This document shows, piece after piece, positions 40,581 to 58,880 of a DNA stretch of 64,000 nucleotides. A program made the position numbers and the translations under genes. Under the pieces are notes generated by a model, which saw only the letters and a list, made by a program, of their open reading frames with translations, made no database searches and had not been told where the DNA came from. This stretch comes from Streptomyces alanosinicus (GTDB lineage: Bacteria > Actinomycetota > Actinomycetes > Streptomycetales > Streptomycetaceae): assembly GCF_014650595.1 (NCBI RefSeq), contig NZ_BMVG01000028.1, positions 1-64,000 of the forward strand, written 5' to 3'. The number at the start of each line of letters is the position of its first letter. Positions within the stretch are counted from its first letter, which is position 1.

Positions 40581-40644
40581 TCTGGATGCGGCTGCGTCCC
40601 GGTGATATCTGTTGAGATCGCCAAGCGCAGCAAGGGGGGATGGC

Positions 40645-41745
40645 GTGACGAGCCAGCATGACGGTCAGCCGGGGGGCGAAGAGCAGCGGGCACTGACAGT
40701 GCTGCCGCCTAGGCTCAGCATGCCGAGGATGGCGACGCCGAAGCAGACGGTCACTTTCCTGTACGACCCCGACGAATTCGAGGAGTTCGTGAAGGAATGG
40801 GTGCCGACGCAGGGGGCGAAGTACGACCTCGTTGAACGGCAGGGAGGCGCGGGGGACCACGGCATCGACGTGGCGGGCTTCCTGACGCAGGCGAAGCTGG
40901 AGGGGGAATGGCACAACTACCAGTGCAAGCAGTACAAGAGGGATCTGTCCTGGACCACTGCGGCCCAGGAGATGCGGAAGATGTTCGTGGCCGCTGCGGC
41001 CGGCCACTTCACCGTCCCCACCCGCTACGTCTTCGTTGCTCTCACCTTCGCTGCCAGCCTGAAGCGCCTCATCTCGAAGCCGTCCGAGTGCCAGGCAAAG
41101 TTCCTGGAAGACCTGTCCACGACCAAGGACAAGCTCGTGACCAAACTCGACGCTGACGAGCGCCGGAAGGTCGAGGGGCTGGCGGAAGGCACTGACTTCG
41201 GGATGTTCTCGTGCATCGATCTCGATCAGCTGCTCGAGGAGCACATGACCACGCCTCACTGGCTCGCGCGCTTCCCGCAGGCTCCGCCGGCGAGCGGGCC
41301 GATGAAGCTGACTCCTCCCGAGCGGCCCCGGCACGACGAGGCGCGGTATGTGCAGCGCCTCGTCGAGGTCTACCGGGAGCGGTTCCCCGACAAGATCAAC
41401 AGTCTTGAGCAGGTCGACGACGTGGCCGAGGCCAAGGGGCATCTTCTGCGACAGCGGGTGGCCTTCTTCGCTGCGGAGTCCGTGCGTGTGTTCGCGCGGG
41501 ACTCGACCACATCAGACTATTTTGACCAGGTTAAAGAGGATATCTACACGATTGTCGTGGAGGAGGCGGAGCGGGCCCACCCAAGTGGCTGGGAACGACA
41601 CGCAGCCGTCACGATCTGCGCGGGCGCCGTGGAAGTGACCGAGACGATCCTCAAGCCCTACGTGGGACCGGAGGTCCGCAAGGGGATATGTCACCACCTG
41701 GCAAACGACAACCGCCTTATCTGGTGCCGGGAGGGAGAGCAGTGA
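40645..41745 (+). CDS. ABC-three-component system effector with Mrr-like nuclease domain
   Basis: The protein has 366 residues, GTG 40645 preceded by AGGGGGGA. The N-terminal domain has a PD-(D/E)xK nuclease pattern of the Mrr type: ERQGGAGDHGIDVAGFL (Asp) and HNYQCKQYKRDL (QxK), about residues 60-100. The middle has HFTVPTRYVFVAL. The C-terminal half (EARYVQRLVEVYRERFPDKI, then HLLRQRVAFFAAESVRVFAR) fits the C-terminal domain of ABC-3C proteins. Its stop overlaps the start of the small middle component (GTGA). In such systems an ATPase senses a threat and the linked nuclease acts on nucleic acid; the role here is inferred from that. Confidence 0.7.
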   Translation: MTSQHDGQPGGEEQRALTVLPPRLSMPRMATPKQTVTFLYDPDEFEEFVKEWVPTQGAKYDLVERQGGAGDHGIDVAGFLTQAKLEGEWHNYQCKQYKRDLSWTTAAQEMRKMFVAAAAGHFTVPTRYVFVALTFAASLKRLISKPSECQAKFLEDLSTTKDKLVTKLDADERRKVEGLAEGTDFGMFSCIDLDQLLEEHMTTPHWLARFPQAPPASGPMKLTPPERPRHDEARYVQRLVEVYRERFPDKINSLEQVDDVAEAKGHLLRQRVAFFAAESVRVFARDSTTSDYFDQVKEDIYTIVVEEAERAHPSGWERHAAVTICAGAVEVTETILKPYVGPEVRKGICHHLANDNRLIWCREGEQ

Positions 41746-42203
41746 CCCCGCTCAACAGCCCACTCGAGGTTGGCGTGCGCGCCCTTGTCCTCCTGGCCGA
41801 GAGCCACCCCCGGCCTTTGGACCTCGCCCAGCTCGTCGCGCTGGACTACCTCGTACTCCACAGCGGCGAGTTCGACGGCCCGCGCAGCCTCCACCCCGAC
41901 CTGCCGGCCCGGGAAGGCGAGCTCGGCAGGAAGCGAGAACTCCTCGAACAGGGTCTTCTCGTGCTGATCCGGGCCGGGCTGGCCGACATCGTCAGCAGCG
42001 AGGGCGGCCTCATGTACGCGGCCACCGAAACCGGCCCCACCTTCATCGAAGTGCTGGAAGCCCCTTACGTCGCATCTCTGCGCGAACGCGCCGAGTGGGC
42101 CCTCCGCCACTACGCCTCCGCGGCGCATGCCCGCAGTGTGACCCACCAGATCATCAACCGCGCCGCAACAGGCTCCGCATCCGAAGGGGCTGGCCATGGC
42201 TGA
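41742..42203 (+). CDS. ABC-three-component system middle component
   Basis: The protein has 153 residues from GTG 41742, overlapping the effector stop. It begins EVGVRALVLLAESHPRPLDL, continues LVALDYLVLHSGEFDGPRSL and ends with a winged-helix-like region (KRELLEQGLLVLIRAGLADI). This fits the small middle-component family of ABC-3C operons. It overlaps the ATPase start by 8 bases. Confidence 0.65.
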   Translation: MTPLNSPLEVGVRALVLLAESHPRPLDLAQLVALDYLVLHSGEFDGPRSLHPDLPAREGELGRKRELLEQGLLVLIRAGLADIVSSEGGLMYAATETGPTFIEVLEAPYVASLRERAEWALRHYASAAHARSVTHQIINRAATGSASEGAGHG

Positions 42204-44058
42204 CCTGCGTCTGACACATCTCACCTACGCCTCCGCGACCAAGCCGCTCGCCACAGTGGACTTCGACCCGTCCCTCACCGTCGTCTACGGGGCCTCGGAC
42301 ACCGGCAAATCGTTCGTCGCGGAGTCCATCGAGTACATGCTCGGCGGCAGCAAGCTCGACCTCGTCTCTGAAGCCGAGGGATACAGCCAGATCCTCCTCG
42401 GCCTCGAACTCGACGACGGTACCCCGCTCACCCTGCTGCGCGTCCCGGACGGCAACACCATCCACGTGCACTGGGCCGACTTGCGGGAACAGGTCACCCG
42501 CCCCTCCGACTTCGACGTCACGGCCAAGCACACCGCGCGCAGCAAGAACAGCCTCTCCCAGTTCCTCCTCGGCAACCTCGGATGGGACGACCTGCGCATC
42601 CGTACGAACGACGCAGGCGGCACCCGCGAGCTGCGCCTGAGCGACCTGGTGCACCTCTCGGTCGTTCCCGAGAACCGCATGGTCGACAAACGCTCCCCAG
42701 TCCTGCACTCCTCCTCGACCAACGGGAAAACCGCGGCGGCCTCCGTCATGCGGCTGCTGATGACCGGAGAAGGCGACGCCGAGGTCACCACCGGCATGAA
42801 CGCCGGCCAGCGCCGCGTCAACAAAGGGCAGGTCAGCCTCCTCGACCGGATCATCGTCGACCTGCAGAACAAGCTCAGCACCTCCGAGAACGTCCAGGAA
42901 CTCCGCTACCGGCACCGGCGCCTGCAGACAGCCATCGACGGCTACTCCCGCGCAGTCGAGACCATCACCCAACAGCACCTGAACTCCGTGGCCGAACGCA
43001 TGTCGGTCACGGAGGAGCTGGCCGGGATGGAAGCGCGCCTGGCCGAGGTTGGCGACCTCATGTCCCGGTTCACCCTGCTGGAACAGCAGTACCGCTCCGA
43101 CATCGACCGGCTCGTCATGGTCACCGAGGCCGGCAACCTCCTGGGGTTCTTCAAGGTCGGCACCTGCGTCTTCTGCGGCGCCGAACCCGAACACCAGCAC
43201 CCCGACCACAGCGAACGCGAGACGACCCAGCTGCATCTCGCAGTGGAGACCGAGATGGCCAAGACCACCTCGCTCCTTGATGACCTTCGGCCGACCATGC
43301 GCGACCTGCGCAGTCAGCTCGAAGAGCTCAGCAGCCGCAGGGAGGAGCTGAAGGCATCCGCTGCTCGCCTCGACGCGGACATCTCCGTCACCCGGGGACG
43401 GCTCGCCCCGCTGCGCGAGGACATGGACCAGCATCTTGAGGTCCGCTCGGCCATCGAACGCGACCTGGACCTTCACCAGCGCATCGAGGAACTGGAAGAA
43501 CGCCGGTCGCAGCTGGACGGTGAAGCCGCAACGCCCGCCCACCGGCCCACCGACTACATTCCGAACCGGGCACTCTCCGCCTTTGACCAGGTCCTCCAGC
43601 ACACGCTGGAGGCGTGGAAGGTGCCTTCCGTCGAGTACGCGGAGTACGACCAGTACCAGATGGAGATCAGGGCAGGTAACCGACTGCGGGCCTCTCGGGG
43701 CAAGGGCGTCCGCTCCGTGCTGCACTCCGCATTCACCACGGCCCTGGCCCACTACTGCCGTGAGCACGACCGGCCGCACCCCGGGCTCGTCGTCCTCGAC
43801 TCGCCCGTCGTCACCTACCGCGGCCCCCACAGCGACCCCCAGGGCGACGCCCCAGGTGACGACGTACCGATGACATCGACCGTCGTCGATCACTTCTACC
43901 GGAACATGCTCACCTTCCCAGGACAGGTGATCATCTTCGAGAACGGCGACCCGCCCCACGACGTCATCGCCCAGGCCCGCACCCACCGGTTCGGCCTGCA
44001 AGAAGGCGACCGTGCCGGCTTCTTCCCTTCAAGGCGGGAGAGGCGGTCAGGTCCGTGA
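42196..44058 (+). CDS. ABC-three-component system ATPase (DUF3732, Rad50/SMC-like)
   Basis: The protein has 620 residues. Walker A is VVYGASDTGKSFVAESIEYM (about residue 30). Long coiled coils flank a zinc-hook-like CVFCGAEPEHQH (Cys-x2-Cys, about residue 323), and the Walker B region GLVVLDSPVV is near residue 530. This is the Rad50-like plan of DUF3732 proteins in ABC-3C systems. The antisense strand also has a long open frame, which is a by-product of high GC codons. It ends the three-gene operon; phage-derived genes follow on the other strand. Confidence 0.75.
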   Translation: MADLRLTHLTYASATKPLATVDFDPSLTVVYGASDTGKSFVAESIEYMLGGSKLDLVSEAEGYSQILLGLELDDGTPLTLLRVPDGNTIHVHWADLREQVTRPSDFDVTAKHTARSKNSLSQFLLGNLGWDDLRIRTNDAGGTRELRLSDLVHLSVVPENRMVDKRSPVLHSSSTNGKTAAASVMRLLMTGEGDAEVTTGMNAGQRRVNKGQVSLLDRIIVDLQNKLSTSENVQELRYRHRRLQTAIDGYSRAVETITQQHLNSVAERMSVTEELAGMEARLAEVGDLMSRFTLLEQQYRSDIDRLVMVTEAGNLLGFFKVGTCVFCGAEPEHQHPDHSERETTQLHLAVETEMAKTTSLLDDLRPTMRDLRSQLEELSSRREELKASAARLDADISVTRGRLAPLREDMDQHLEVRSAIERDLDLHQRIEELEERRSQLDGEAATPAHRPTDYIPNRALSAFDQVLQHTLEAWKVPSVEYAEYDQYQMEIRAGNRLRASRGKGVRSVLHSAFTTALAHYCREHDRPHPGLVVLDSPVVTYRGPHSDPQGDAPGDDVPMTSTVVDHFYRNMLTFPGQVIIFENGDPPHDVIAQARTHRFGLQEGDRAGFFPSRRERRSGP

Positions 44059-47186: not shown

Positions 47187-47455
47187 GAGTGCTGCTCCCA
47201 GATGGCCCCGCGCCGTGGTCGAGTCTACGCAGGCCAACATCACGGGCTGCGAACTCCGGCTGCCACAGTGCGCCGGTATATGTGCTGTATACACCTGGCA
47301 TGATCGTCTACGTACAAATGAAGCAACGGTGTTGTAGCACTAGTCGATTTTTGGCACCGCAGAGCAGGACTCGTCGCGTGGTCCGGAATGACATACTGTG
47401 ACATTCTCCGCCGAACGCACGGCACGTCGATCACCTCGGAGTAGGCGATTGACTC

Positions 47456-47815
47456 ATGGGTGAGAGGCGAGGTCAACGGCCCGCAGGATCCGGCCGATGT
47501 ACGGCGGTTCGCCATCGCCGTGCAGAACCGGGTCTGCTCGCACAGGCAGAGAGAGTCGGCTGGGCGTTGAAGACGCTGCAGATCGTGCACCGTAAGGCGG
47601 GAGTCTGGTTGTCCTCCCAGATCAGCGGAAGCGACCCGCGCCCCAACGAGACGCTGATCGACGTGAACCTGGGGCTCCGCGTCTCGGATCTGCTGGATAG
47701 CGTGACGGCGCATACCGGCGGGGCGGTCGATCCAGCCCGCGCACCGTCGCGACGCACGAGGTGGGGCACCTACTCCCACGAACATTTGAGTGAGATCGTC
47801 ACTCAACTGGCTTAA
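47456..47815 (+). CDS. Hypothetical protein at the left edge of the defence island
   Basis: The frame encodes up to 119 residues. The C-terminal part (GWALKTLQIVHRKAGVWLSS, then NETLIDVNLGLRVSDLLDSV, SHEHLSEIVTQLA) reads like a real protein, but the first 30 residues are of doubtful quality and the true start may lie within. No family is recognised. It precedes drmA by 193 bases. Confidence 0.4.
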   Translation: MGERRGQRPAGSGRCTAVRHRRAEPGLLAQAERVGWALKTLQIVHRKAGVWLSSQISGSDPRPNETLIDVNLGLRVSDLLDSVTAHTGGAVDPARAPSRRTRWGTYSHEHLSEIVTQLA

Positions 47816-48008
47816 AAGTGGCACTGGTTGAACCTGTTCGGCCTACACCGGCCAATGCGTCGCGCTAGAGTATCGGCCATCTAATAGCCACGCAGTTGCG
47901 CACTTAGCTCTTCTTCGACTTAACCCACATGAGGGTCACGCGAGGGGGTCTCCCCCCGGACGGGCCAACCGGCTATACGCCCACCGTTCACAGCACAGGA
48001 GCTTCGCC

Positions 48009-51000
48009 ATGTCGGCATTCCCTCATGGCCGTGCGTCCGCGCCGGCCAATACGCCTGCCCAGCGATACGACGCCCTGCTCGCGAGCCTCTCGCGCCGCGT
48101 GGTCAGCCAGGCCGTAGGCACTTCAATCCCTAGCGGCACCCGCCTCTCCGACCAGCCTCAGAAGCGCCTGTGGCTCGGCATGCTCGCGAGCGAGCCGAAG
48201 ATGATCCAGGAGACGAACGTCGGTTTTCGCGGCCTCCAGATCACCCCTCCCGCGCAAGGTTTCACCTTCCGCGTACAGAGGTTGCCAAGCGAACTGACCG
48301 TCGAAGTCAGCGCGTCCGCCTTCCTCGCGCTGCACCCAACGGTCGACGAACAGCGCGCGTCTATGGCAACAGAGGCGAGTACCCACGGTTTCGACGCCGC
48401 TGACGAGCTTGGCTCTGCGGCGGCGGATCACGCCCGCGGTGTCCCCGCCGCCGCTCCTGCGCCGCGAACACGAGTGTCCACCTTTGGGAACGGCCAGACT
48501 CCGGGATACCCGCTGGCTCAGGTGTGGACGAAGATCTCGATGACCCCGGTCAAGGTCACGATTCCCCTGGTCTCAGGCGAGGCGCGTTCGGTTCGGGTGG
48601 GGGAAAGCGAGATCGCTACGGCGATGCGCTCCGCGACGGCACGACAGCAGCGGGAGCTCTACCGGCAGCGTCTGGCCGGCCCACCCGTTGGTTCCCTGCC
48701 GCGCGATCACGACCTTATCGACGAACGAACGTGGGCCTCCTACGGAGCTCACAACTTGTTGGCTCCCGATCACCTCACTCCACCTGAGCATCGGGCCGCT
48801 GTCGAGGTCGAGGTGAGGCCCGTAGATGGCTGCTACGAGATCTTCGTCGCCGTCGTGAACACCACGCCCGCTCCGCGTGATCAGTTGGTCGACGGCAATC
48901 GGCCCTACGACGAGGCATACCTGGATACTCGCCTCTACGAGGTCATCCTCTCGGCGACCGTTGATGCGCCCGTCGTGCCGTACGAGCTGGAGCAGGTAGC
49001 CCAGTCGCATCGTTACGAGCGAACGGTCTCAGCCTTCGGACACGCCTCTCCGGTCACGTGCGAGACCCGCGGGGAACGTACAATTTTGCGCACGGAGTTC
49101 GCGGCTGAACAACCGACCTGGCGCGCGCATCCCAGGACGAAGTCCAAGGACGCCGACGGACGAGAGATCCTTATTGACACCACCTTCGACTCGCTCATCG
49201 CGGATCCGATTGGAACAGTCGCGAGGCTCGTGGATCTCCTCGACGTGTGGGTTGAGAGAAATTGGGGCGCGTCCGCTCTCGATGCCCTCCACAAGGCGCG
49301 CGGTTGGAACGACGAGGCGCGCGCTGAGGCCGAGGAGGACGCTCTGGCCGCCCGGGCGGAGGCCAGCTGGGTACGCGCTGGGCTCGAGACCCTACGCGCC
49401 AACCCCGATGTGTTGGCCGCCTTCGTGGCGGCGAACAAGGTGGTCAAAGCTGCCGCGGAGAACGAGTACACGGCCTGGCGACCTTTCCAGATCGCCTGGA
49501 TCGTCGGCTGCCTCCCCGGCATGGTCGACCCCAGGAAGCACCGCGAGGTCAACATCGTCTGGTTCCAGACAGGTGGTGGCAAGTCAGAGGCCTACCTCGG
49601 CTTGATGCTGGTCACTCTGTTCTACGGCAGGTACACCGGCGTCACCCGCGGGACTCAGGTGTGGGCTCGCTTCCCCCTGCGCCTGCTGGCCCTCCAGCAG
49701 ACAGAGCGATTCGCGAAGATGGTGCTGCACGCGGAGGTCCTGCGGCAGCGAGACCCACGCATTCGCCACACGGGGGCCTTCGGCATCGGTTACTTCGTTG
49801 GTGGCGGCAACACACCGAACAAGCTGTACAAACCCGGCAACAACAGCTATCACGGGCCTGACCCCACGTCACCTGAGACAGCGGAGGCCTGCCGGGTGCT
49901 GGACGACTGCCCGTTGTGCGGCTGCCCGCTAGCGGTGCGGTGGGACGATCCCAGCCACACCATGCGTCACATTTGCGAGAACGACGGTTGTCAGCTCTCG
50001 GGAGTGTTGCCGGTATGGGGCGTAGATGACGATATCTATCGCCGGGCACCCGCTGTCCTTGTGGGCACTGTAGACAAACTGGCACAACTTGGCCAAAACC
50101 AGGCGTTCCAGATCCTGCTCGGGCGGCCTCACTCCGTCTGCCCTAAGCACGGATACTCCTCCAACCCCAACTGGTGTGCGGTGTATGGATGCCGTGAGAA
50201 CCGGCTCCCCGTGCCGAAGGGATTCGGGCATGTACGCCTGGAGATCGCGGACGAGCTCCACTTGCTCGATGAGAGCCTTGGCGCTCTCGACGGCATGTAC
50301 GAGTCACTACTCCAAAAGATCAGCGAGCACCTGAACAACGATCCGTTTCAGATCGTTGCGGCCACCGCGACGATCGAGGGATACAAGAACCAGGTGCGCC
50401 ACCTCTACGACCGGGACGCGAGGCGCTTCCCCGTCAATGGTCCGGAGGCGGGGGAGACATTCTGGTCCACCACCGAGATTGGCGATCCACTGCGCCGCTA
50501 CCTTGGCGTGCGCTCCCGGGCGAGCACGATGGTCACCGCCACCCGAGAGGTCGCCGTCGTCCACGACTACTGGGTACGTGACCTGTGCACCAATCCCAAG
50601 AGCGTCGTCGCGGAAGCCGGCCTGGACGCCAACGACCCCGACATCGTGGAGGAGGCTCGAAAGGCCGGCGAAGACCTTTACGAGGTGCTGGTCACCTACT
50701 GTCTGCGCAATGAGGACCTGACGAGCTTCACCCGGGACCCGGCGGTGAGTGACCTCCTAGTCAGCCGGGACAACCTCGCGATCATCAACGGCGACGCCAG
50801 CCCATCGGCGATTCGAGGGGCGGTTACCCGGCTGCTTGAACGTCCTGACGACGAATCCGAACGTGTCAAGATCATCGCTGCCACGAAGGCGATCGGGCAT
50901 GGATTCGACGTCTCACGACTCGGCGTCATGGCCGTCATGGGAACCCCGACTCAGGCCTCCGAGATCATCCAAGCGTCCGCGCGTGTGGGGCGACGACACC

Positions 51001-51500
51001 CGGGCCTGGTCGTGAACGTGATTAACCCCAGTCGCGACCGCGATGCCAGCGTCTTTCGCTACTACCCCGAGTGGATCAGGTACCTGGACCGCCTAGTCCA
51101 CAAGGTTCCCGTCAACCGCGAGTCGGTACCCGTACTCAAGCGAGTGTTGCCAGGCGGATTGATGGCGTGGCTGCTCCAGGTGCTCGACCGTGCCTGGATC
51201 ACGGGAGCGCCGAAGCGACGCTCGTTGGCGGACTCGACGGCCTTCCGTGACGCCGTGAACGCCGGCGCTATCGACAAGAAGCTGCTCGTCTCACTTCTGC
51301 GTCACGGTTTCGGCATCGACGACACCAGCATCTACCACCGCATGCACCGGCAGGCCATCGATTCCTGGGTGGACGAACATCTGACTACGGTCCCGCTGCG
51401 GGCGGAAGCTGGTGACAGGCTGCCCACCTTGCTGAACCCGTCTGTGCCCCGGTCTCTCCGGGATATCGAGGAACCTCTGATCATCTACGGCGAGTTGTAG
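48009..51500 (+). CDS. drmA: DISARM helicase-like protein DrmA
   Basis: The protein has 1163 residues, ATG 48009 with AGGAG upstream. SF2-type motifs are a Walker A in WFQTGGGKSEAYLGLML (about residue 520), the DEAD-box-like ADELHLLDES (about 746) and the C-terminal IIAATKAIGHGFDVSRLGVM with SARVGRRHPG (motif VI, about 989). A four-Cys zinc-binding segment (CPLCGCPLAVRW to CENDGC, about 638-660) lies between. This is the layout and length of DrmA (DUF1998-associated helicase). It is the first of three co-oriented DISARM core genes. DISARM restricts phage DNA with the help of a methyltransferase that marks self DNA. Confidence 0.9.
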   Translation: MSAFPHGRASAPANTPAQRYDALLASLSRRVVSQAVGTSIPSGTRLSDQPQKRLWLGMLASEPKMIQETNVGFRGLQITPPAQGFTFRVQRLPSELTVEVSASAFLALHPTVDEQRASMATEASTHGFDAADELGSAAADHARGVPAAAPAPRTRVSTFGNGQTPGYPLAQVWTKISMTPVKVTIPLVSGEARSVRVGESEIATAMRSATARQQRELYRQRLAGPPVGSLPRDHDLIDERTWASYGAHNLLAPDHLTPPEHRAAVEVEVRPVDGCYEIFVAVVNTTPAPRDQLVDGNRPYDEAYLDTRLYEVILSATVDAPVVPYELEQVAQSHRYERTVSAFGHASPVTCETRGERTILRTEFAAEQPTWRAHPRTKSKDADGREILIDTTFDSLIADPIGTVARLVDLLDVWVERNWGASALDALHKARGWNDEARAEAEEDALAARAEASWVRAGLETLRANPDVLAAFVAANKVVKAAAENEYTAWRPFQIAWIVGCLPGMVDPRKHREVNIVWFQTGGGKSEAYLGLMLVTLFYGRYTGVTRGTQVWARFPLRLLALQQTERFAKMVLHAEVLRQRDPRIRHTGAFGIGYFVGGGNTPNKLYKPGNNSYHGPDPTSPETAEACRVLDDCPLCGCPLAVRWDDPSHTMRHICENDGCQLSGVLPVWGVDDDIYRRAPAVLVGTVDKLAQLGQNQAFQILLGRPHSVCPKHGYSSNPNWCAVYGCRENRLPVPKGFGHVRLEIADELHLLDESLGALDGMYESLLQKISEHLNNDPFQIVAATATIEGYKNQVRHLYDRDARRFPVNGPEAGETFWSTTEIGDPLRRYLGVRSRASTMVTATREVAVVHDYWVRDLCTNPKSVVAEAGLDANDPDIVEEARKAGEDLYEVLVTYCLRNEDLTSFTRDPAVSDLLVSRDNLAIINGDASPSAIRGAVTRLLERPDDESERVKIIAATKAIGHGFDVSRLGVMAVMGTPTQASEIIQASARVGRRHPGLVVNVINPSRDRDASVFRYYPEWIRYLDRLVHKVPVNRESVPVLKRVLPGGLMAWLLQVLDRAWITGAPKRRSLADSTAFRDAVNAGAIDKKLLVSLLRHGFGIDDTSIYHRMHRQAIDSWVDEHLTTVPLRAEAGDRLPTLLNPSVPRSLRDIEEPLIIYGEL

Positions 51501-51564
51501 TCAGCCGCGCAAGTCAGCGTGCCGCACCAGCCGTTCTCAATCACGTCTCTCCAGAGAGTCCGTC

Positions 51565-53433
51565 ATGGCCTTCGAACAGCTCAGTCGCAGTAATATCCAA
51601 GCCCTCTGGCGCTACATGCCCGGCCAGCCATACAACTGGTCCTCCAAGGGATCGGTCATCGGCCAGCCACCCCGACAGGTGACCGCCCTCGATGTGCCCG
51701 AGGGCTGGGTCGCTCCGCAACTCACTCGCCTCCTCCTGCCGTTCGCCGCCGCGGCGAAGGGTGGCTCAAGGTCGGGAGCTGAACTGCACGCGATCGATCG
51801 CGGACAGTTCAGGCTCGTGAAGGCGGAGGACCTGCGCGCCACGCGTTTCCCCAACACCTTTATCTGCCGTGCGTGTGGCCTCCTCAAGACCGTCCGAGCG
51901 AGTGACCCGGCGCCGGCCTGCTCGGTGTCCAGCCACGGGGGTATGGCCCAATTCTCCTGGGGTGAGGTGCATGAGTGTGGCCATCTGAAGGAGCTTTCGG
52001 TGCCGCGATGTGCCTCCGGTTGCCAGGGCGCGATGCGGCTCTGCAACACCCGCGACTTGAACACGTACCGCTGGTACTGGATGTGCGGTCGTTGCCAAAG
52101 GCGCTCCGACCAGCCGATCGTCAAGTGGTGCTCTACCTGTCGCGAGGGTCGCCCTCAGGTGATGCGTGTGCCACAGACGTCGGTCTATTACCCCCAGCAG
52201 ATCACCGTCATCAACCCGCCGACTCGGGGCACTTATGGGGCCCTGGCCCACAAGCGCGTGTACGCGGCAGCTGTGGCTCAGAGTCTTGGCCTCCTGCCCA
52301 AGGGTGCGGAAGGACTACGACGGGGAGGAGGCTCCACCGCCACGGGAGGCGCCGTAGAACAGGCACGCGAGATGGCCGCGACCCTCGGCCTGAAGGCGGG
52401 CGATGATCTCTATAACCAACTCATCGCTGAGGCCAAGAAGAAGGAGGGAGACGCGCCCGCGTGGGACGCACAGGTCGACTCCCTCGGACGGGATCCAGAC
52501 ACGATTGAGGAGTTCGGTGAGGAGTGCCGTCAGCTTGGGTTGGCCTGGGACGCCAAGCCCCTGACGTCTCAGGAGCTGCTGGACGGCGACGAGGGAACTG
52601 AGCTTGAGCCCATCTACCGGCGGTACCGCAAGCTCTTCACCCATTACGGGTTCGCCGACGTGACCCTGCTGCGAGAGCTCCCGATCGCCTACATCGTCGC
52701 TGGCTACACCAGGATCAGCAGCAAGGCGGTCGCGACGACCCGTCGGGGAACGCAGACTACGCAGCAGTTCCGCTTCTTCCCCGCTGGCCGGGACAGCAAG
52801 TTCCCGATGTATGGCGTCCGTACGGAGACCGAGGGCTTGCTGTTCGAGCTGGACAAACTCGCCGTGGTGAAGTGGCTCGTCGACTCCGGTCTCGTCGCGG
52901 ATCCGGGCGTGCGTACACAGGAAGACGCTCAACGTTGGATCTTCTCGGTGGCCGACCCAGTAGTCGATGTCTTCAACGCCCCCGAGAACCCGATCAGCCG
53001 GGCGCTACTCGGCCTTGTCCACTCGATGGCGCATCGCACCATGAAGGCCATGGCCAGCAGGTGCGGCCTCAATGTCGATTCGCTGGCGGAGTACCTCTTC
53101 TCGGCGAATTGCGCCTACCTGATCTACGCGAACACTCGAAGCGAATTCACCCTTGGCGGGCTGGAGCATGTCTATCGCTTCGATCTCGAAGACGCGTTGC
53201 GTGAGTTGGACGCGGAGACCCGTTGCGTCTTCGACCCCCCGTGTCGACGGGACTTTGGTGGAGCGTGCGCCGCCTGCCTTCACATCTCCGAGGTCGCTTG
53301 CGCGAGGTTCAACACCGTATTGGACCGCAACCTGCTCTTCGGCACGCTCCCGCTGTCCGCTTCCCCCGCGAGCACACCAGCCAAGTCTGGACGAAAGGAA
53401 GAGCCGCAGTGGCGCGGGTACTGGAGCCACTGA
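51565..53433 (+). CDS. drmB: DISARM protein DrmB (DUF1998)
   Basis: The protein has 622 residues. An N-terminal zinc-binding part carries CRACGLLK (about residue 101), CGHLKELSVPRCASGCQGAM and CGRCQRRS...CSTC. The C-terminal DUF1998 domain includes LGLVHSMAHRTMKAMASRCG and DPPCRRDFGGACAACLHISE, with more cysteines. This is the standard partner of DrmA; the two are known to form a complex. It is separated from drmA by 64 bases and overlaps drmC. Confidence 0.9.
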   Translation: MAFEQLSRSNIQALWRYMPGQPYNWSSKGSVIGQPPRQVTALDVPEGWVAPQLTRLLLPFAAAAKGGSRSGAELHAIDRGQFRLVKAEDLRATRFPNTFICRACGLLKTVRASDPAPACSVSSHGGMAQFSWGEVHECGHLKELSVPRCASGCQGAMRLCNTRDLNTYRWYWMCGRCQRRSDQPIVKWCSTCREGRPQVMRVPQTSVYYPQQITVINPPTRGTYGALAHKRVYAAAVAQSLGLLPKGAEGLRRGGGSTATGGAVEQAREMAATLGLKAGDDLYNQLIAEAKKKEGDAPAWDAQVDSLGRDPDTIEEFGEECRQLGLAWDAKPLTSQELLDGDEGTELEPIYRRYRKLFTHYGFADVTLLRELPIAYIVAGYTRISSKAVATTRRGTQTTQQFRFFPAGRDSKFPMYGVRTETEGLLFELDKLAVVKWLVDSGLVADPGVRTQEDAQRWIFSVADPVVDVFNAPENPISRALLGLVHSMAHRTMKAMASRCGLNVDSLAEYLFSANCAYLIYANTRSEFTLGGLEHVYRFDLEDALRELDAETRCVFDPPCRRDFGGACAACLHISEVACARFNTVLDRNLLFGTLPLSASPASTPAKSGRKEEPQWRGYWSH

Positions 53434-54236
53434 GACCTCTCGTCTCCCTTCTCCAGCAAGCGGCGGACCCTGTCCGCGTCGCAGCGGCCGCGACCAGCCT
53501 CGCGGCCGCCGGCGCCACCGCAGCGAAAGTGATTGAGCAGGTCGCCCACGCGGTGACGGATCAACGCCTCGTGCCCCACGCCCTCGTCCACGCCGGTGTG
53601 CTCAGAGAAGACGGACACCTTACCGAGTCGGCACCATTGCTTCTCGCCCAAGCCCACGCCATGGTCGCGATGTCAGTCGAGGACAACTGGGACCTGGTCT
53701 TGACCGTTCCGACCTTCTTGCGTGATTCACTGAGCACGATGTCCCGGGACAACGGCGGCCCGGGACTCCCTCTCGATACGGAGCCTACGCTCCGCATGGT
53801 CGCTGAGAGCGCCCAGGATCGACTGGTGATGGCCGCGCCTTATCTGCACCCATCCTTCGTCGCCGCGCTGGCGCCCGCTCTGGCCGATCTCTTGGCGAAT
53901 GGAGGGCGCGCGGTCCTGATCACAAGGGCGTTGGGTGTTTCGGCACCAAAGCGTTCCGACGCCAATGTCGACTCTGTGTCCATTCTTCTTGAGGCCGCGG
54001 GCGCAAACGGTGGTCGCCTCAAAATCTGCTCGTGGGACGAAGCTGGCCTAGGTGTCCACTTCAAGGTCTTGCTCGCGGACGAACATCTGGCGTACGTCGG
54101 ATCCGCCAACCTCACGCCTGGAGGCACTTCGTCACACGCCGAAGCAGGCGTGCTGCTGCGAGGAAGACGGGTTAGGTCGCTCTCGCGTTGGCTCCATGTG
54201 GTGGCTGATGAGCTCATACGAAGGTCACTCGCGTAA
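53409..54236 (+). CDS. drmC: DISARM phospholipase D-like protein DrmC
   Basis: The protein has 275 residues from GTG 53409 (GGAAGAG upstream), inside the 3' end of drmB. The phospholipase D motif is LGVHFKVLLADEHLAYVGSA followed by NLTPGG (HxKx4D, about residue 216). Only one HKD copy is visible, as is normal for DrmC, which probably dimerises to form a nuclease site. A hairpin at 54288-54310 follows. Confidence 0.88.
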   Translation: MARVLEPLRPLVSLLQQAADPVRVAAAATSLAAAGATAAKVIEQVAHAVTDQRLVPHALVHAGVLREDGHLTESAPLLLAQAHAMVAMSVEDNWDLVLTVPTFLRDSLSTMSRDNGGPGLPLDTEPTLRMVAESAQDRLVMAAPYLHPSFVAALAPALADLLANGGRAVLITRALGVSAPKRSDANVDSVSILLEAAGANGGRLKICSWDEAGLGVHFKVLLADEHLAYVGSANLTPGGTSSHAEAGVLLRGRRVRSLSRWLHVVADELIRRSLA

Positions 54237-54287
54237 GCCTCTACAAGGCCCTTCCGCCGGTCGCCCCGCTCGGGCAGGACCAGACTA

Positions 54288-54310
54288 CCCAGGCATCGGT
54301 GGTGCCTGGG
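54288..54310 (+). terminator. Hairpin terminator after drmABC
   Basis: CCCAGGCA and TGCCTGGG form an 8-bp stem with a 7-base loop, 51 bases past the drmC stop. Confidence 0.6.
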
Positions 54311-54482
54311 CGCGTCCCCATCCGCCCTGGGCACACACGCGCAGTCGTGACCTCAAAGACAACAGGAGCGGTGGAGCCGACTCCCGACCCGAGAGGCCAC
54401 TTATGATCCACGACTCAAGGTCAGGAAGGCTGGAGGCGAAGTGGTCGCCCGTGGCAGAGGGCCGCGTGGCACACTCAGCCGT

Positions 54483-54671
54483 ATGATCCGCGAACCAACA
54501 GAGCTAACCGTCCAAGCGGACGGAACCGTTGAGTTGCCCATGGGGCTGTTGGCCGAGGCCGGCCTGAACCCGGGGTCCACGGTTCTCGCTTACAGCGACG
54601 GGGACGGCCGGATCGTGCTGCGCCGCTTTGAGGACTCGGTCGAGGACCTACTAGGTGGGCATGGTTTGTAG
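54483..54671 (+). CDS. AbrB/MazE-like small DNA-binding protein
   Basis: The protein has 62 residues. It has the swapped-hairpin (SpoVT-AbrB) pattern: ELTVQADGTVELPMGLLAEA, then LNPGSTVLAYSDGDGRIVLR. MazE-type antitoxins and AbrB-like regulators share it, but no toxin gene sits next to it. No ribosome site is seen, so a leaderless message is likely. Its 3' end overlaps the convergent Vsr gene by about 20 bases. It may regulate the restriction genes; that is inferred from position only. Confidence 0.65.
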   Translation: MIREPTELTVQADGTVELPMGLLAEAGLNPGSTVLAYSDGDGRIVLRRFEDSVEDLLGGHGL

Positions 54672-55463
54672 GTCTGGGCGTTCAACCGTCGCGCGCTCAG
54701 GGCGGAGAACCGCGATGACCCGGTTGGCCGCGTCGACTGGGTCATCGTGTTCCCAAACCCGGATGACCGTCCAGCCAGCTTGGCGCAGGAGGCTGTCAGT
54801 CTCTGCGTCTCGCTTGCGGTTTCCCTCGATCTTCTCGCGCCAGAAATCGATGTTCTTCGTGGCGGGTCGGTGGTGCTCCGGGCAACCGTGCCAGAAGCAG
54901 CCATCGACGAAGACCGCGACACGCGCCTTGGGAAAGACGACGTCGGCCGTCCTGCGCAGTTGAGGCAGTGGCCTAATCCCCACGCGATAGCGCAGGCCCG
55001 CCCGGTGCAGGAGCGAGCGCAGCCGGATCTCTGGTTTGGTGTCCCTGCTGCGGTTACCCCGCATCACAGACCGGACGGCCGGCGAAGTGGCCCATGACCG
55101 CTCGGGCGGCGGCTCCTCGGCGAGAAGCCCGGCGTCCCTCGCCATCTCCCATGCCTGAGCCAGGTTGGCACCACGTGTCTCGTGCGCGACCTCGCCCACA
55201 TACTCAGCTGGTGAGCGGCCCTTGTCGGACCACCGGAGATAAGCCCGGATGCGCCGTGTCTTGGGGAGGACCTTCAGCTCGATGGAAGCGCGCGCGAAGC
55301 GGCCGTCGCCCAGGTCCACCATGCGTCGGTGCCGTCCACTAGCGGCACGGTCCTGCTCGGCCGCCAGCGCCTCACGGCTTCTTCCCTCTCGGCCCTTCCA
55401 CGCGCGGGCGGGTGGCGGCTTGTCCTTCCATCGGCTTGGCTCGGTTGGTGCCATACCGGTCAC
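54651..55463 (-). CDS. vsr: Very short patch repair endonuclease (Vsr)
   Basis: The protein has 270 residues, longer than usual because of an N-terminal extension of about 125 residues (RRIRAYLRWSDKGRSPAEYV, a segment common in actinobacterial versions). The Vsr core follows: SVMRGNRSRDTKPEIRLRSL, RTADVVFPKARVAVFVDGCF, WHGCPEHHRPATKN and the VWEHDD end. Vsr nicks next to T:G mismatches that arise by deamination of 5-methylcytosine, limiting mutation at methylated sites. Its GTG overlaps the methyltransferase stop by four bases, so the two are coupled. Confidence 0.88.
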   Translation of the reverse strand: MTGMAPTEPSRWKDKPPPARAWKGREGRSREALAAEQDRAASGRHRRMVDLGDGRFARASIELKVLPKTRRIRAYLRWSDKGRSPAEYVGEVAHETRGANLAQAWEMARDAGLLAEEPPPERSWATSPAVRSVMRGNRSRDTKPEIRLRSLLHRAGLRYRVGIRPLPQLRRTADVVFPKARVAVFVDGCFWHGCPEHHRPATKNIDFWREKIEGNRKRDAETDSLLRQAGWTVIRVWEHDDPVDAANRVIAVLRPERATVERPDLQTMPT

Positions 55464-56785
55464 CTACGGCTCTCCGCCTCGTCCAGGGCGGCGGCCACGG
55501 CCTTGGCGAAGACCTCGCCGAGTAGAACGGGGACGGCGTTGCCGAGTTGCCGCATCTTCTCTCCGCGAGGACCTTCCAGCTTGTGGTCATCCGGGAATGT
55601 CATGACGCGAGCGGTCTCTCGAACGGTCATGTAGCGGTGCTTGTACTTCCAGCCGTTAGGGGCTTCGGGGTCCGGCTCTTTGTCGTCCAGGAGCATGACC
55701 GATTCCCCACCGGGTACACCGTGCACGCCGGCCTTGACGGTCTTCGCCGGCCTGTCCAGCTCGTTGGGCGTGTGGCCGTCGTAGATACGGGCACCGGGCC
55801 AGCCGATGTGGTAGGTAAAGCCCCCCAAGTAGTGCTCCTTGCGATCGAAGAGCTCCTCGGGGACGGGGGGTAGGGGCCTGTTCCCATCGATTCCGGCGAT
55901 CGCGTCGCGAAGGGTCCGCCAGGGCTTCTTCTCGCCGTCCTCGTCCTGCGGCAGCTCCTGCTGCGGCAGCCGCGCGTGGACGCGTTCCGCAACGTGGTCC
56001 GGCACTTCCCGGATGGCTCGATGGCGCTTCCAGTAGGACCCGTCCAGCATGGAGCGGATCAGTGCCTCTTCCGAGTACTGGGGGCGCACGGCCCTCTTGA
56101 AGGCCTCGATATCGACGTTCAAGTCCGCCCGGAACGCGACGAGGATGACCCGGTGTCTGATCTGCGGCACGCCGTAGTCAGCGGCGTTCACCGGGGTCAT
56201 GATGACCTCGTACCTCTCGGACGGGTCGCGAGGCTTTTCCTCCCGGCGTCGCTTCAGGATCTTGTCGTGCTCTTCCCATGACGCCCCGTCCGCGCGTTCC
56301 TCGAAAGGCAATTCCAGCTCCCGCTGGATGTAATCGAAGTACCGCTTGAACGAGGGGCGAAGCAAGCCACGGACGTTCTCGCAGATCACGGCCTTGGGTC
56401 TGATCTGCCGAACCGCCCTGAACATCTCGGGGAACATGTTGCGCGAGTCCTCGGTACCCTTGTGGGCGCCCCCGAGGCTGAAGGGCTGACAGGGCGGACC
56501 GCCCGCGAGGACGTCGACCTCGGCGTCACGCAGGTACTCCATGGACAGCTCTCGGACGTCGCCCACGACCAAGGGACAGGGCTCGCCGGGCTTGGGGATC
56601 CCTTCCTCGTCGCCGCGGGGCTTGGCCCCGTTGGCCTCCAGGGTCTCGCCCGCTCGCTTGTTGAACTCGTTATAGAGGAGCGGACGGAAGCCCGCACGCT
56701 GGACACCCAGCGCCAAGCCGCCAGCGCCCGCGAACAGCTCGACGCTGGTGCGGTCCTTAGTTTGCTCTCCAAGCTGATCAGGCAT
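55460..56785 (-). CDS. C5 cytosine DNA methyltransferase (DrmMII-type or Eco29kI-type partner)
   Basis: The protein has 441 residues from ATG 56785. C5 methyltransferase motifs are complete: I ELFAGAGGLALG, IV GGPPCQPFSLGG (catalytic Cys), VI ENVRGL, VIII QIRHRVILVAF, and X GNAVPVLLGEVF. The target-recognition region lies between VIII and IX. DISARM class 2 uses a C5 enzyme (DrmMII), and Eco29kI-type restriction systems also use one. A single such gene here may serve both. Divergent promoters to the GIY-YIG gene share the 115-base gap at 56786-56900. Confidence 0.9.
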   Translation of the reverse strand: MPDQLGEQTKDRTSVELFAGAGGLALGVQRAGFRPLLYNEFNKRAGETLEANGAKPRGDEEGIPKPGEPCPLVVGDVRELSMEYLRDAEVDVLAGGPPCQPFSLGGAHKGTEDSRNMFPEMFRAVRQIRPKAVICENVRGLLRPSFKRYFDYIQRELELPFEERADGASWEEHDKILKRRREEKPRDPSERYEVIMTPVNAADYGVPQIRHRVILVAFRADLNVDIEAFKRAVRPQYSEEALIRSMLDGSYWKRHRAIREVPDHVAERVHARLPQQELPQDEDGEKKPWRTLRDAIAGIDGNRPLPPVPEELFDRKEHYLGGFTYHIGWPGARIYDGHTPNELDRPAKTVKAGVHGVPGGESVMLLDDKEPDPEAPNGWKYKHRYMTVRETARVMTFPDDHKLEGPRGEKMRQLGNAVPVLLGEVFAKAVAAALDEAESRR

Positions 56786-56900
56786 GATGAAAGCATACCG
56801 CGGAGTTGTCGATCTTGTTGCGGGTGTGGCGAGAAATTTCTCCTCACATTCCCGATCGCGGATAGGGTGCCGGTGATCACTTGAGCGAAAGGACGCTTGG
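56786..56900. promoter_or_regulatory. Divergent promoter between methyltransferase and nuclease
   Basis: This 115-base region is AT-richer than its surroundings (GAGAAATTTCTCCTCA) and separates the two start codons. CCGCGG lies at 56798-56803, 13 bases before the methyltransferase ATG. CCGCGG is the target of the reference enzyme Eco29kI, so methylation could feed back on expression; single sites are common in DNA this rich in GC. Confidence 0.5.
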
Positions 56901-57743
56901 ATGACGCCGGCAGTCGAGTCCGATGGCGGGGCCAAGTACCACAGAGACTTCACCCTGAGTATCACCAAGGCCCTCGGCGATCAGCTCGCGGACGCGCTTG
57001 AGGGACTGGACAGGGCTCCGTTGGCCGAGGACAGCATCGACGACCTCAAGGAGAAGCCCGGGGTCTACCAGCTCTACCTCAATGGCGAGTTCGTCTACGT
57101 GGGCAAGGCGGACAAATCGATACCCGTTAGGCTACGTCAGCACCTCCGCAAGATCGGCGGACGTCGCGGCATCTCCCTGCGAGACGTGGAGTTCTCTTGC
57201 CTCTACGTCGCGGAGGACTTCTCCGCCCTCGCACCGGAGCAACTGCTTATCACGCACCACAAAGAAGCTGGCCAGATCCCATGGAATAACAACGGCTTCG
57301 GCAACAAGGACCCTGGCCGGAATCGTGACAGCACAGTCCTCAAGGCCAACCACTTCGACATGCTATTCCCCATCGACCTGGAACGTACGGTCGATGGGCT
57401 CACGCCAGGTGTCGTAACTCTTCAGAAGTTGCTGGACGACGTGAAGACGGGCCTTCCGTACAACTTCAGGTATCAGAAGTCGCCTCTCTTCAAGCAGCGA
57501 TTGGTGACGACCCCTGAAGCGAATATGACGGCGGACTCCGTCTTCAGGCTGATCGCGAAGGAGATACCAGACTCCTGGCAAATCGTCGCCCTGATGGGTT
57601 ACGTGATCATGTACGACGACAGCCCCCGCGAGTATCCGAGCGCCTGGCACTACTACCGCGGGGCGGAGTCATTCGAGACGGCGCCAGAGGCTGAGCCCCC
57701 CGGCCCTATCGATGAGGCCGAGGAATCCGACGAGGACGCATAG
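56901..57743 (+). CDS. GIY-YIG nuclease
   Basis: The protein has 280 residues, ATG 56901 with GAAAGGA upstream. The GIY-YIG motifs are GVYQLYLNGEFVYVGKADKS (GVY...YVG) with the following Arg in RLRQHLRKIG, the catalytic Glu in ALAPEQLLITHHK, and the WNNNGFGNKDPGRNRD end, as in Eco29kI-type nucleases. The C-terminal half is longer than in Eco29kI and ends in an acidic tail. It begins the plus-strand nuclease pair opposite the methyltransferase. Confidence 0.8.
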   Translation: MTPAVESDGGAKYHRDFTLSITKALGDQLADALEGLDRAPLAEDSIDDLKEKPGVYQLYLNGEFVYVGKADKSIPVRLRQHLRKIGGRRGISLRDVEFSCLYVAEDFSALAPEQLLITHHKEAGQIPWNNNGFGNKDPGRNRDSTVLKANHFDMLFPIDLERTVDGLTPGVVTLQKLLDDVKTGLPYNFRYQKSPLFKQRLVTTPEANMTADSVFRLIAKEIPDSWQIVALMGYVIMYDDSPREYPSAWHYYRGAESFETAPEAEPPGPIDEAEESDEDA

Positions 57744-57860
57744 TCAACCAGTTCGACCCCACAGTCGCTCCCAGGCGGCGTGGATGTACACCAAGAGTAG
57801 CCACGCGAGCACTCGACGGCCACACTCGTCGTCGAACGCTGCCCGCATCACGGAGCCCTC

Positions 57861-58607
57861 ATGACCACGCCAAGCACCCTGTCCTCCTGGGCTGAGTCCG
57901 AACCGCCCCCGGCTCCCCCACGGAGAAAACCCAAGCCCGCCAGTTGGATGGATAGTGCTCAGCGGCACGAAGAGTACAACCCTCTCGACCTGGAAAACCT
58001 CGGCCGCAGCGTAGAGGCGCAACTGCTGCGCCGCCCGATCGAACCGCTGGCATCCATCGCGCCTACCCTCGGCGCCGGTGTCTACGCCATCTATTACTCG
58101 GGCCCTCATCCGCTCTACACGCCGATCGCCGAACCGTTTGGGGGCACCCCTATCTATGTGGGCCAAGCTCGCCGCGAGGGGGAACGCAAAGGCACAACAG
58201 ACCTGAACGCTCCAACGCGCGCCCTCTTTGATCGTCTAGAAGAGCATAAGGACTCCATAGAACAAGTCGCTCGGCTCGATAGCGATCTTGATATCCAGTT
58301 CTTTCACGCGCGTTACCTCGTAGCGATCGAAGCCTTCGTTAGCCTCGCGGAGCGCGTCATGATCCGGCACTATCGCCCTGTCTGGAACACTGTCGTCGAC
58401 GGCTTTGGCAATCACAATCCGGGAGCCGGCCGCTTTGACAAACAGGCACGGCCCGCATGGGATGATCTACATCCGGGCCGCTGGTGGTCACATCCGAAAC
58501 GTATGAAGAAACCAAGCGCCCGGTCGCCCGAGCAATCGCGCCAATTGATCAAGGCGCACTTCGTGGGCGTTCCCGCACAGGTCACGAGTGAAGACGCCAC
58601 TCTCTGA
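57861..58607 (+). CDS. Eco29kI-family GIY-YIG restriction endonuclease
   Basis: The protein has 248 residues. It has the Eco29kI-family pattern: GVYAIYYSGPHPLYTP with PIYVGQARREGERKG (split GIY...YIG), RLEEHKDSIEQV, the catalytic Glu in AERVMIRHYRPVWN, and VVDGFGNHNPGAGR. Eco29kI itself cuts CCGCGG; the target here is not known. It lies 117 bases after the first GIY-YIG gene and is the last gene of the island, just short of the phage remnant at 58615. Confidence 0.87.
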   Translation: MTTPSTLSSWAESEPPPAPPRRKPKPASWMDSAQRHEEYNPLDLENLGRSVEAQLLRRPIEPLASIAPTLGAGVYAIYYSGPHPLYTPIAEPFGGTPIYVGQARREGERKGTTDLNAPTRALFDRLEEHKDSIEQVARLDSDLDIQFFHARYLVAIEAFVSLAERVMIRHYRPVWNTVVDGFGNHNPGAGRFDKQARPAWDDLHPGRWWSHPKRMKKPSARSPEQSRQLIKAHFVGVPAQVTSEDATL

Positions 58608-58614
58608 AGACGGC

Positions 58615-58880
58615 TCACGCTGTCCAGGCGGCGATGCGTTCAGAGCTGAGGGTTATCGGTAGCGGCGGGCGGCGGTCAGCCATGTCACCGCTATCGACTC
58701 GTCCCCGTCCTCTTCCTCGTCGGCGCCGTCGGGGGCGGGGGGCCTGGCGGACCTGTTCGATCTGCCGCTCGATGCCCTGCAAGTTCTCGTGCAGATCCGT
58801 GGTCACTACGCCATCGACGGTGACCTTCAGGGGGTCGGCAAGGAGCTTGGCGCGTCGCTCGCCTAGGGCTCGTTCACTGG
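58615..58880 (-). pseudogene. Phage protein remnant (relative of the 44340 gene)
   Basis: The minus-strand frame reads ERRAKLLADPLKVTVDGVVT and TTDLHENLQGIERQIEQVRQ, matching the middle of the gene at 44340-44660. No start codon lies in frame upstream, so the 5' part has been lost. It lies directly at the right edge of the defence island. Confidence 0.55.

What the first reader, a model, noticed from the sequence alone, without database searches (positions are those of the whole stretch)
56901..58607. Two different GIY-YIG nucleases in tandem
The products of 56901 and 57861 share the GIY-YIG core and the WN...GFGN-x-PG-x-R ending, but they differ in length and in the rest of the sequence. Eco29kI-type systems usually have one nuclease gene. 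The pair may form a heteromeric enzyme, cut different forms of DNA, or one may have taken a new role such as acting with DISARM.
Basis: partly seen in the sequence, partly recalled or inferred. Interest (0 to 1): 0.55.

Follow-up and report, generated by a model that had tools for sequence, protein, structure and literature searches.

The report
Two DNA cutters sharing one methylase
A prophage in a Streptomyces-like bacterium carries a restriction system with two different intact DNA-cutting enzymes and only one protective methylase; comparison with relatives suggests that both cutters aim at the same site (CCGCGG) and can stand in for each other, which is unusual for such systems.

Summary
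In detail: 56901-57743 (GIY1, 280 aa) and 57861-58607 (GIY2, 248 aa) encode two diverged GIY-YIG nucleases, each with all six catalytic positions. They belong to a Vsr + 5mC-methylase (MT) + GIY1 unit found in Actinobacteria and Proteobacteria. GIY2 is an Eco29kI-type enzyme added to this unit repeatedly and at different positions; three MT-Vsr loci have GIY2 and no GIY1. Close methylases have different nucleases: a GIY2-only and a GIY1-only MT share 85% of the target-recognition region. That region is homologous to M.Eco29kI's (CCGCGG), and CCGCGG lies just upstream of the MT gene in 54 of 56 actinobacterial loci. Best reading: one CCGCGG methylase guards two interchangeable, independently working isospecific nucleases, probably with methylation feedback on the MT promoter (CfrBI-like). 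An obligate heteromer, a decaying duplicate and a DISARM-specific role are not supported; a facultative mixed dimer, or nested but different sites, is not excluded. Genomes with the unit do not avoid CCGCGG more than genomes without. The drmABC + restriction block is cargo inserted in a prophage head-gene module. No experiment was possible. New variant of a known kind.

The parts
56901..57743 (+). GIY1: GIY-YIG nuclease (280 aa), the core restriction gene, divergent from the methylase; predicted Eco29kI-like fold with an extra domain (about residues 157-244)
57861..58607 (+). GIY2: Eco29kI-family restriction endonuclease (248 aa), accessory second nuclease
55460..56785 (-). MT: C5-cytosine DNA methyltransferase (441 aa, start chosen by me), target-recognition region homologous to M.Eco29kI
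54651..55463 (-). Vsr-type mismatch endonuclease with an N-terminal extension (270 aa)
56798..56803 (.). CCGCGG site in the divergent MT/GIY1 intergenic region, 12 nt before the MT start codon, directly followed by TATGCT on the MT strand; present upstream of MT in 54 of 56 actinobacterial loci
48009..51500 (+). drmA (divergent DISARM helicase), same inserted island
51565..53433 (+). drmB (divergent)
53223..54236 (+). drmC (PLD nuclease; the true start is probably downstream of 53223)
47245..58872 (.). Approximate extent of the inserted drmABC + restriction island inside a prophage head-gene module

Best explanation
A Type II restriction-modification unit in which a single 5mC methylase, most likely specific for CCGCGG (Eco29kI specificity), protects the cell against two independent, isospecific GIY-YIG nucleases. 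GIY1 is the family's core nuclease; GIY2 is an Eco29kI-type enzyme that joins, doubles or replaces it. Each probably acts as its own homomer and cuts unmethylated CCGCGG. Vsr repairs T:G mismatches left by deamination of the methylated cytosine. A CCGCGG site at the MT promoter probably lets methylation turn MT transcription down once the genome is modified (CfrBI-like). Shown: gene content, intact active-site residues, interchange of nucleases between closely related methylases, homology of the target-recognition region, the conserved upstream site. Inferred: CCGCGG as the actual target of MT and of both nucleases, homomeric action, methylation feedback, and that the benefit of doubling is layered restriction.
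For: Architecture: of 57 non-duplicate GIY1 loci, 26 have GIY2 within 3 kb of the unit (13 on the Vsr side, 10 on the GIY1 side, 2 twice on the GIY1 side, 1 on both sides), 2 have it farther off, 29 lack it in the stretch held; 3 further MT-Vsr loci (L074, L078, L079) have GIY2 and no GIY1, and tblastn with 8 GIY1 queries found no GIY1 remnant there (its one hit, in L074, lies on GIY2 itself). Swaps: GIY2-only L078 MT against GIY1-only L030 MT, 85% identity in the recognition region and 85% elsewhere; Ruegeria GIY1-type MT against Pseudosulfitobacter Eco29kI-type MT, 63% and 75%, sisters at SH-aLRT 100 in a quick tree. Recognition region against M.Eco29kI: 69 family rows (4 of them duplicates) 17.7-46.7%, 21 control 5mC rows mean 7.7%, maximum 13.4%. 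Upstream site: CCGCGG in 52 of 54 anchored actinobacterial MT upstream regions (50 of them 61-66 nt before a protein anchor; L050 and L059 at other distances) and, read directly, in L053 and L054: 54 of 56; random 260-nt windows 20.5%; the other seven GC-only hexamer palindromes in 3-10 of the same 65 regions. Active sites: all six residues in 61 of 61 GIY1 rows (57 distinct loci) and in 33 of 34 GIY2 copies at MT loci. Fold: P0001 Z 11.2 to R.Eco29kI; P0002 TM-score 0.82 by target length. Literature: two distant members of GIY2's family, R.Eco29kI and R.DraR1, both cut CCGCGG, R.DraR1 as a homodimer (PMC1952068, PMC10855626, passages read).
Against: CCGCGG is not measurably rarer in genomes with the unit (o/e 0.78) than without (0.81; difference -0.032, interval -0.129 to 0.053). 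The upstream CCGCGG is absent from all 11 non-actinobacterial-unit regions examined (3 GIY1-type plasmid units, 8 Eco29kI-type systems including Eco29kI itself; one of the 8 is a Corynebacterium plasmid). Window MT and M.Eco29kI share only 21% in the recognition region. P0001 fails Pfam's Eco29kI cut-off, so its specificity rests on its methylase partners alone. R.DraR1 cuts m5C-methylated CCGCGG too (PMC10855626, passage), so 5mC protection is not universal in the family. No multimer prediction or experiment could be run. Relatedness inflates all counts, and the 47-locus scan was seeded with P0001.
Confidence: 0.7

Rival explanations
1. GIY1 and GIY2 form an obligate heteromeric (Type IIT-like) enzyme with one active site each.
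For: The two genes are neighbours on the same strand in 12 of 57 non-duplicate GIY1 loci, the window included, and neighbours on opposite strands in 1.
Against: 29 of 57 GIY1 loci lack GIY2 in the stretch held and 3 MT-Vsr loci have GIY2 without GIY1; GIY2 position, orientation and subclade vary; the inferred target is palindromic with a single methylase.
Confidence: 0.07
2. The two nucleases have different but nested sites, both covered by the one methylase (for example MT sees a shorter core than either nuclease).
For: One methylase serves both; GIY2 subclades differ in the loop after GFG; MT's exact motif was not measured.
Against: Nuclease types differ between methylases with 63-85% identical recognition regions; the upstream site is a full CCGCGG within a conserved ACTCCGCGGTAtG context (50 aligned regions).
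Confidence: 0.13
3. The second nuclease is a passenger: a leftover from another Eco29kI system whose methylase was lost, on its way out.
For: One of 34 GIY2 copies at MT loci is truncated (L083) and L030 holds an 18-residue GIY2-like trace (E 0.003).
Against: 33 of 34 copies keep all six catalytic residues, several subclades are found at MT loci, and three loci carry two copies (L021, L022, L081).
Confidence: 0.07
4. GIY2 (or GIY1) has become part of DISARM.
For: drmABC lies next to the unit in the window, L013, L014 and L020, and no other PF00145 methylase was found on the window's contig.
Against: Only 4 of 57 GIY1 loci have drmABC adjacent, 1 more a divergent drmAB nearby; in L020 the linked drmA is 82% but GIY2 only 42% identical to the window's.
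Confidence: 0.03

Closest known systems
R-M system Eco29kI (CCGCGG; PMC1952068, abstract and passages read)
   Same: GIY2 is an Eco29kI-family nuclease with the six catalytic residues; MT recognition region homologous to M.Eco29kI
   Different: The Eco29kI plasmid record shows one nuclease, R before M in tandem and no Vsr; here two nucleases, Vsr, divergent genes
CCGCGG m5C R-M systems surveyed in PMC10855626 (abstract and passages read)
   Same: That paper counts 310 putative m5C systems for CCGCGG, some with a Vsr-like element
   Different: The passages seen do not mention two nucleases per methylase or a GIY1-type partner; its own subject, R.DraR1, has an m4C methylase
Vsr-MT-GIY-YIG operons on Rhizobium, Ruegeria and Methylocaldum plasmids
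   Same: Same three genes as the core, GIY1-type nuclease
   Different: Tandem operon, no GIY2 annotated or matched in the stretch, no upstream CCGCGG
CfrBI R-M (promoter methylation control; PMC12707154 and PMC3874152, passages read)
   Same: Divergent M and R genes with the system's own (here inferred) site in the promoter region
   Different: Control by methylation is untested here; whether the enzymes are related was not tested
Type IIT heteromeric enzymes such as BbvCI (PMC6326814, search listing and start of abstract only)
   Same: Two different nuclease genes in one R-M locus
   Different: There two subunits make one enzyme; here each occurs without the other
SacII of Streptomyces achromogenes (recalled, no call)
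   Same: Expected specificity CCGCGG; L018 is an S. achromogenes genome with the unit and both nucleases
   Different: Whether L018 encodes SacII, and through which nuclease, was not tested

Membership tests
Eco29kI-family Type II endonuclease (GIY2) | RE_Eco29kI profile above Pfam cut-off | tested here: met
   159.3 bits against 30.8
Eco29kI-family Type II endonuclease (GIY2) | Y49/Y76/R104/H108/E142/N154 active site | tested here: met
   residues as named in PMC1952068
Eco29kI-family Type II endonuclease (GIY2) | Cleaves CCGCGG | not testable with these tools
   inferred from MT homology and upstream site
Eco29kI-family Type II endonuclease (GIY1) | RE_Eco29kI profile above Pfam cut-off | tested here: not met
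   27.0 bits against 30.8; the predicted fold is nearest R.Eco29kI, Z 11.2 over 136 residues, so it may work like one but is not filed as a member
GIY-YIG nuclease superfamily (GIY1) | GIY-YIG profile above cut-off and catalytic residues | tested here: met
   26.4 against 22.6 bits; Y56 Y66 R77 H81 E113 N129 in 61 of 61 rows
Type II R-M system | Methylase linked to the nuclease across relatives | tested here: met
   MT and Vsr in 56 of 57 GIY1 loci; the exception L057 ends about 100 nt after GIY1
Type IIT heteromeric endonuclease | Both subunits always present together | tested here: not met
DISARM (linked genes) | drmA, drmB, drmC present | tested here: inconclusive
   PADLOC hits clear for drmA and drmB, weaker for drmC; all three below NCBIfam curated cut-offs
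DISARM (linked genes) | Own DrmMI/DrmMII methylase | tested here: inconclusive
   MT scores 293 bits as Type II methylase and 129 as DrmMII; only PF00145 was searched across the genome
CfrBI-type promoter-methylation control | Recognition site in the promoter region of divergent M and R genes | tested here: inconclusive
   CCGCGG present in 54 of 56 actinobacterial loci, but that CCGCGG is the recognition site, and where the promoter lies, are inferred
CfrBI-type promoter-methylation control | Methylation changes promoter activity | not testable with these tools
   needs a reporter assay

The most novel reading that the evidence does not exclude
Actinobacteria have an R-M design in which one methylation mark licenses a pluggable set of isospecific nucleases (GIY1, GIY2, or GIY1 with one or two GIY2 copies), kept as a redundant team against phage anti-restriction or differing in one-site versus two-site cutting, controlled by the mark itself at the MT promoter, and in the drmABC-linked lineages supplying the self mark for DISARM as well.
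Probability: 0.25. Interest if true: 0.72.

Novelty: new variant of a known kind. Interest (0 to 1): 0.55.

Why it matters
R-M systems are usually described as one nuclease per methylase. A family in which one methylase repeatedly gains, doubles and swaps nucleases of the same aim would show that the methylase, not the nuclease, is the stable centre, and would let one ask directly what a second isospecific nuclease adds. The upstream recognition-like site gives a large natural set for a control mechanism that a recent review calls apparently rarely used (PMC12707154, passage read).

Tried and rejected
Avoidance of CCGCGG: no difference between 20 stretches of 20 kb from 8 genomes with the unit (one of them, G016, with a GIY1 that holds a stop) and 20 from 20 genomes without a GIY1 or GIY2 match. 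In the flanks of L013-L059 CCGCGG had the lowest o/e (0.74) of eight GC-only palindromes, but there is no matched control. The phylum-wide profile search with A1 matched 33 of 396 genomes, but apart from the own genome the matches were weak (E 7.7e-8 or worse, parts of the profile; perhaps UvrC and other GIY-YIG proteins, not checked); A2 matched 5 of 396. Terminal repeats of the island: none convincing. PDB sequence search with P0001 gave one chance-level row. The drmB search found only weak relatives, 25-42% identical in the rows shown, outside the own genome, so DISARM linkage could not be studied in that sample. Literature: no paper on two isospecific nucleases under one methylase, and none on GIY-YIG genes with DISARM, was recognised in the listings; the library lacks most subscription papers, and two look-ups were not held. 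Rows dropped: L082, L085, L086, L087 (same contigs as L029, L033, L040, L045) from locus counts and trees, but still among the 69 rows; L026 MT (split in two ORFs) from the MT tree and the control; L083 GIY2 (truncated) from the GIY2 tree; control methylase C_L131_0 from the control mean because it looked like a family member (recognition region 34%, rest 59%). The 21 control rows include repeated records of one gene from overlapping loci. Trees are quick trees without bootstrap, and long branches meet in both.

Full report
What is there. The two ORFs are as reported. GIY1 (P0001) passes the Pfam GIY-YIG cut-off but not the Eco29kI one; GIY2 (P0002) is a clear Eco29kI-family enzyme, and R.Eco29kI is its best solved relative by sequence. 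They share only a short stretch by BLASTP. To the left, on the minus strand, lie a C5-cytosine methylase (MT, start taken at 56785) and a Vsr endonuclease, then drmC, drmB and drmA on the plus strand. MT and GIY1 are divergent with 115 bp between the chosen start codons.

Both nucleases look active. The residues that mutagenesis or modelling assigned to the R.Eco29kI active site (PMC1952068: abstract and passages read) have equivalents in P0002 (Y75, Y99, R125, H129, E164, N176) and in P0001 (Y56, Y66, R77, H81, E113, N129; the pairing by motif and spacing is mine). In P0001's family these are present in 61 of 61 rows (57 distinct loci), and in 33 of 34 GIY2 copies at MT loci; the exception is truncated. 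Three GIY2 relatives without the MT in the stretch held (L075-L077) have altered active-site positions. Predicted structures (P0001 pLDDT 86.5; P0002 78.5) both match R.Eco29kI best: P0001 with Z 11.2 over 136 residues, against 7.7 for the next different protein (the N-terminal domain of a plant Grx) and 6.3 for UvrC; P0002 with TM-score 0.82 by target length. P0001 seems to be an Eco29kI-like fold carrying an extra alpha/beta domain at about residues 157-244.

The unit and its variants. A genome scan for P0001 gave 47 loci, the Streptomycetaceae sample 11 of 249 genomes, the plasmids 3 records, the viral contigs 1 (about 96% identical; its gene map matches that of L014) and the phage records none. 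Annotating them by similarity gives 57 non-duplicate GIY1 loci (the viral contig not counted). MT and Vsr accompany GIY1 in 56 of 57, also in Rhizobium, Ruegeria and Methylocaldum as a Vsr-MT-GIY operon; in L051, L055 and L056 GIY1 lies in tandem before MT. GIY2 within 3 kb is present in 26 of 57, farther off in 2, absent in 29 (some of these on short contigs). It lies on the GIY1 side, on the Vsr side, on both, or twice. In L074, L078 and L079 MT-Vsr has GIY2 and no GIY1; in L078 and L079 GIY2 sits in the divergent position. The scan was seeded with P0001, so these fractions are not population frequencies; the 249-genome sample is less biased: GIY1 11, GIY2 13, both 5. The GIY2 tree has several subclades at MT loci, and the two copies in L021 and L022 come from different ones. 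On the MT tree GIY2 presence needs at least 10 changes (not compared with shuffled labels).

Why the same target. (a) Close methylases with different nucleases: L078 against L030, and Ruegeria against Pseudosulfitobacter. (b) The MT recognition region is homologous to that of M.Eco29kI, whose nuclease cuts CCGCGG; control 5mC methylases from relatives fall lower. The direct window-to-M.Eco29kI value is low, 21%, but above the controls against M.Eco29kI (maximum 13.4%). (c) In the alignment of 18 MT-GIY1 intergenic regions the longest invariant block, 16 nt, holds CCGCGG. By anchor CCGCGG is found in 52 of 54 upstream regions of actinobacterial units, 50 of them at 61-66 nt from the anchor, and two regions that the anchor missed (L053, L054) also have it: 54 of 56. 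Of the two misses L055 lacks it and L030 has CTGCGG at the same place, a C-to-T change at the second C, as deamination of a methylated C would leave (one case, anecdotal). The other 11 regions (3 GIY1-type plasmid units, 8 Eco29kI-type systems, one of these on a Corynebacterium plasmid) lack it. In the window the site is followed at once by TATGCT on the MT strand and ends 12 nt before the MT start. The reading as methylation control is by analogy with CfrBI (PMC12707154, PMC3874152: passages read). (d) R.Eco29kI and R.DraR1, two distant Eco29kI-type enzymes, both cut CCGCGG (PMC10855626, passages read; whether L101 holds the very gene of that paper was not checked). (e) Against: genomes with the unit do not avoid CCGCGG more than others.

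One methylase for both. The own genome has two other PF00145 genes, on contig C1, whose recognition regions are unrelated to MT (4% and 8%, L112 rows); on the window's contig only MT matched PF00145. Other methylase classes were looked for only in the island ORFs that were scanned. A nuclease cutting a site that MT does not protect would be harmful, so MT should cover both targets (inference). R.DraR1 tolerates 5mC in CCGCGG (PMC10855626), so sensitivity of GIY2 to the MT mark must be shown, not assumed.

Heteromer, DISARM, decay. See the rivals. A facultative mixed dimer cannot be excluded; no multimer tool was at hand.

Wider setting. The block from about 47245 to 58872 is an insertion in a prophage head module: in 9 of 12 IMG/VR relatives portal, a small ORF and scaffold are contiguous, in one more (L254) portal and scaffold are contiguous without that ORF, and the last two have no portal match (L246) or begin in scaffold (L251). 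A block about 94% identical in DNA (L013, L014; its restriction half in L242) lies instead beside the capsid gene of a prophage whose capsid protein is 65% identical, so the block seems to move between prophages as a unit. L032 has the restriction unit beside the same kind of capsid gene. The window's own place beside the capsid gene holds a Lamassu-like trio.

Verdict. A Type II R-M core with an unusual second nuclease: probably two isospecific cutters under one methylase, interchangeable in evolution. Interest 0.55.

Noticed in passing
window 47245-58872; L013, L014, L242, L243-L254: The drmABC + restriction block is cargo inserted between scaffold and portal genes of a prophage head module; a roughly 94% identical block sits at another place of a different prophage.
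   Followed up: partly
window 40612-44058: Lamassu-like LmuA/LmuC/LmuB trio (two of the three with ABC-3C Pfam domains) downstream of the prophage capsid gene.
   Followed up: partly
window 48009-54236: drmA, drmB and drmC are divergent, all under NCBIfam curated cut-offs; no drmD or drmE match was shown for the 7 island proteins scanned with PADLOC (best 25 rows shown for MT).
   Followed up: partly
window 56798-56803 and 54 of 56 actinobacterial loci: CCGCGG just upstream of the MT gene; L030 has CTGCGG there.
   Followed up: yes
window 54651-55463: Vsr here is 270 aa with the Vsr domain at 128-240, so it has an N-terminal extension that the annotated plasmid versions (137-152 aa) lack.
   Followed up: no
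P0001 residues about 157-244: Confidently predicted extra alpha/beta domain, resembling secretin/TonB-receptor signalling-type folds at middling Z (below 7) only.
   Followed up: no
L075, L076, L077: GIY2 relatives without the MT nearby and with altered catalytic positions; their neighbours were not identified.
   Followed up: no
L018: Streptomyces achromogenes, recalled as the species that gave SacII (CCGCGG), has the unit with both nucleases.
   Followed up: no
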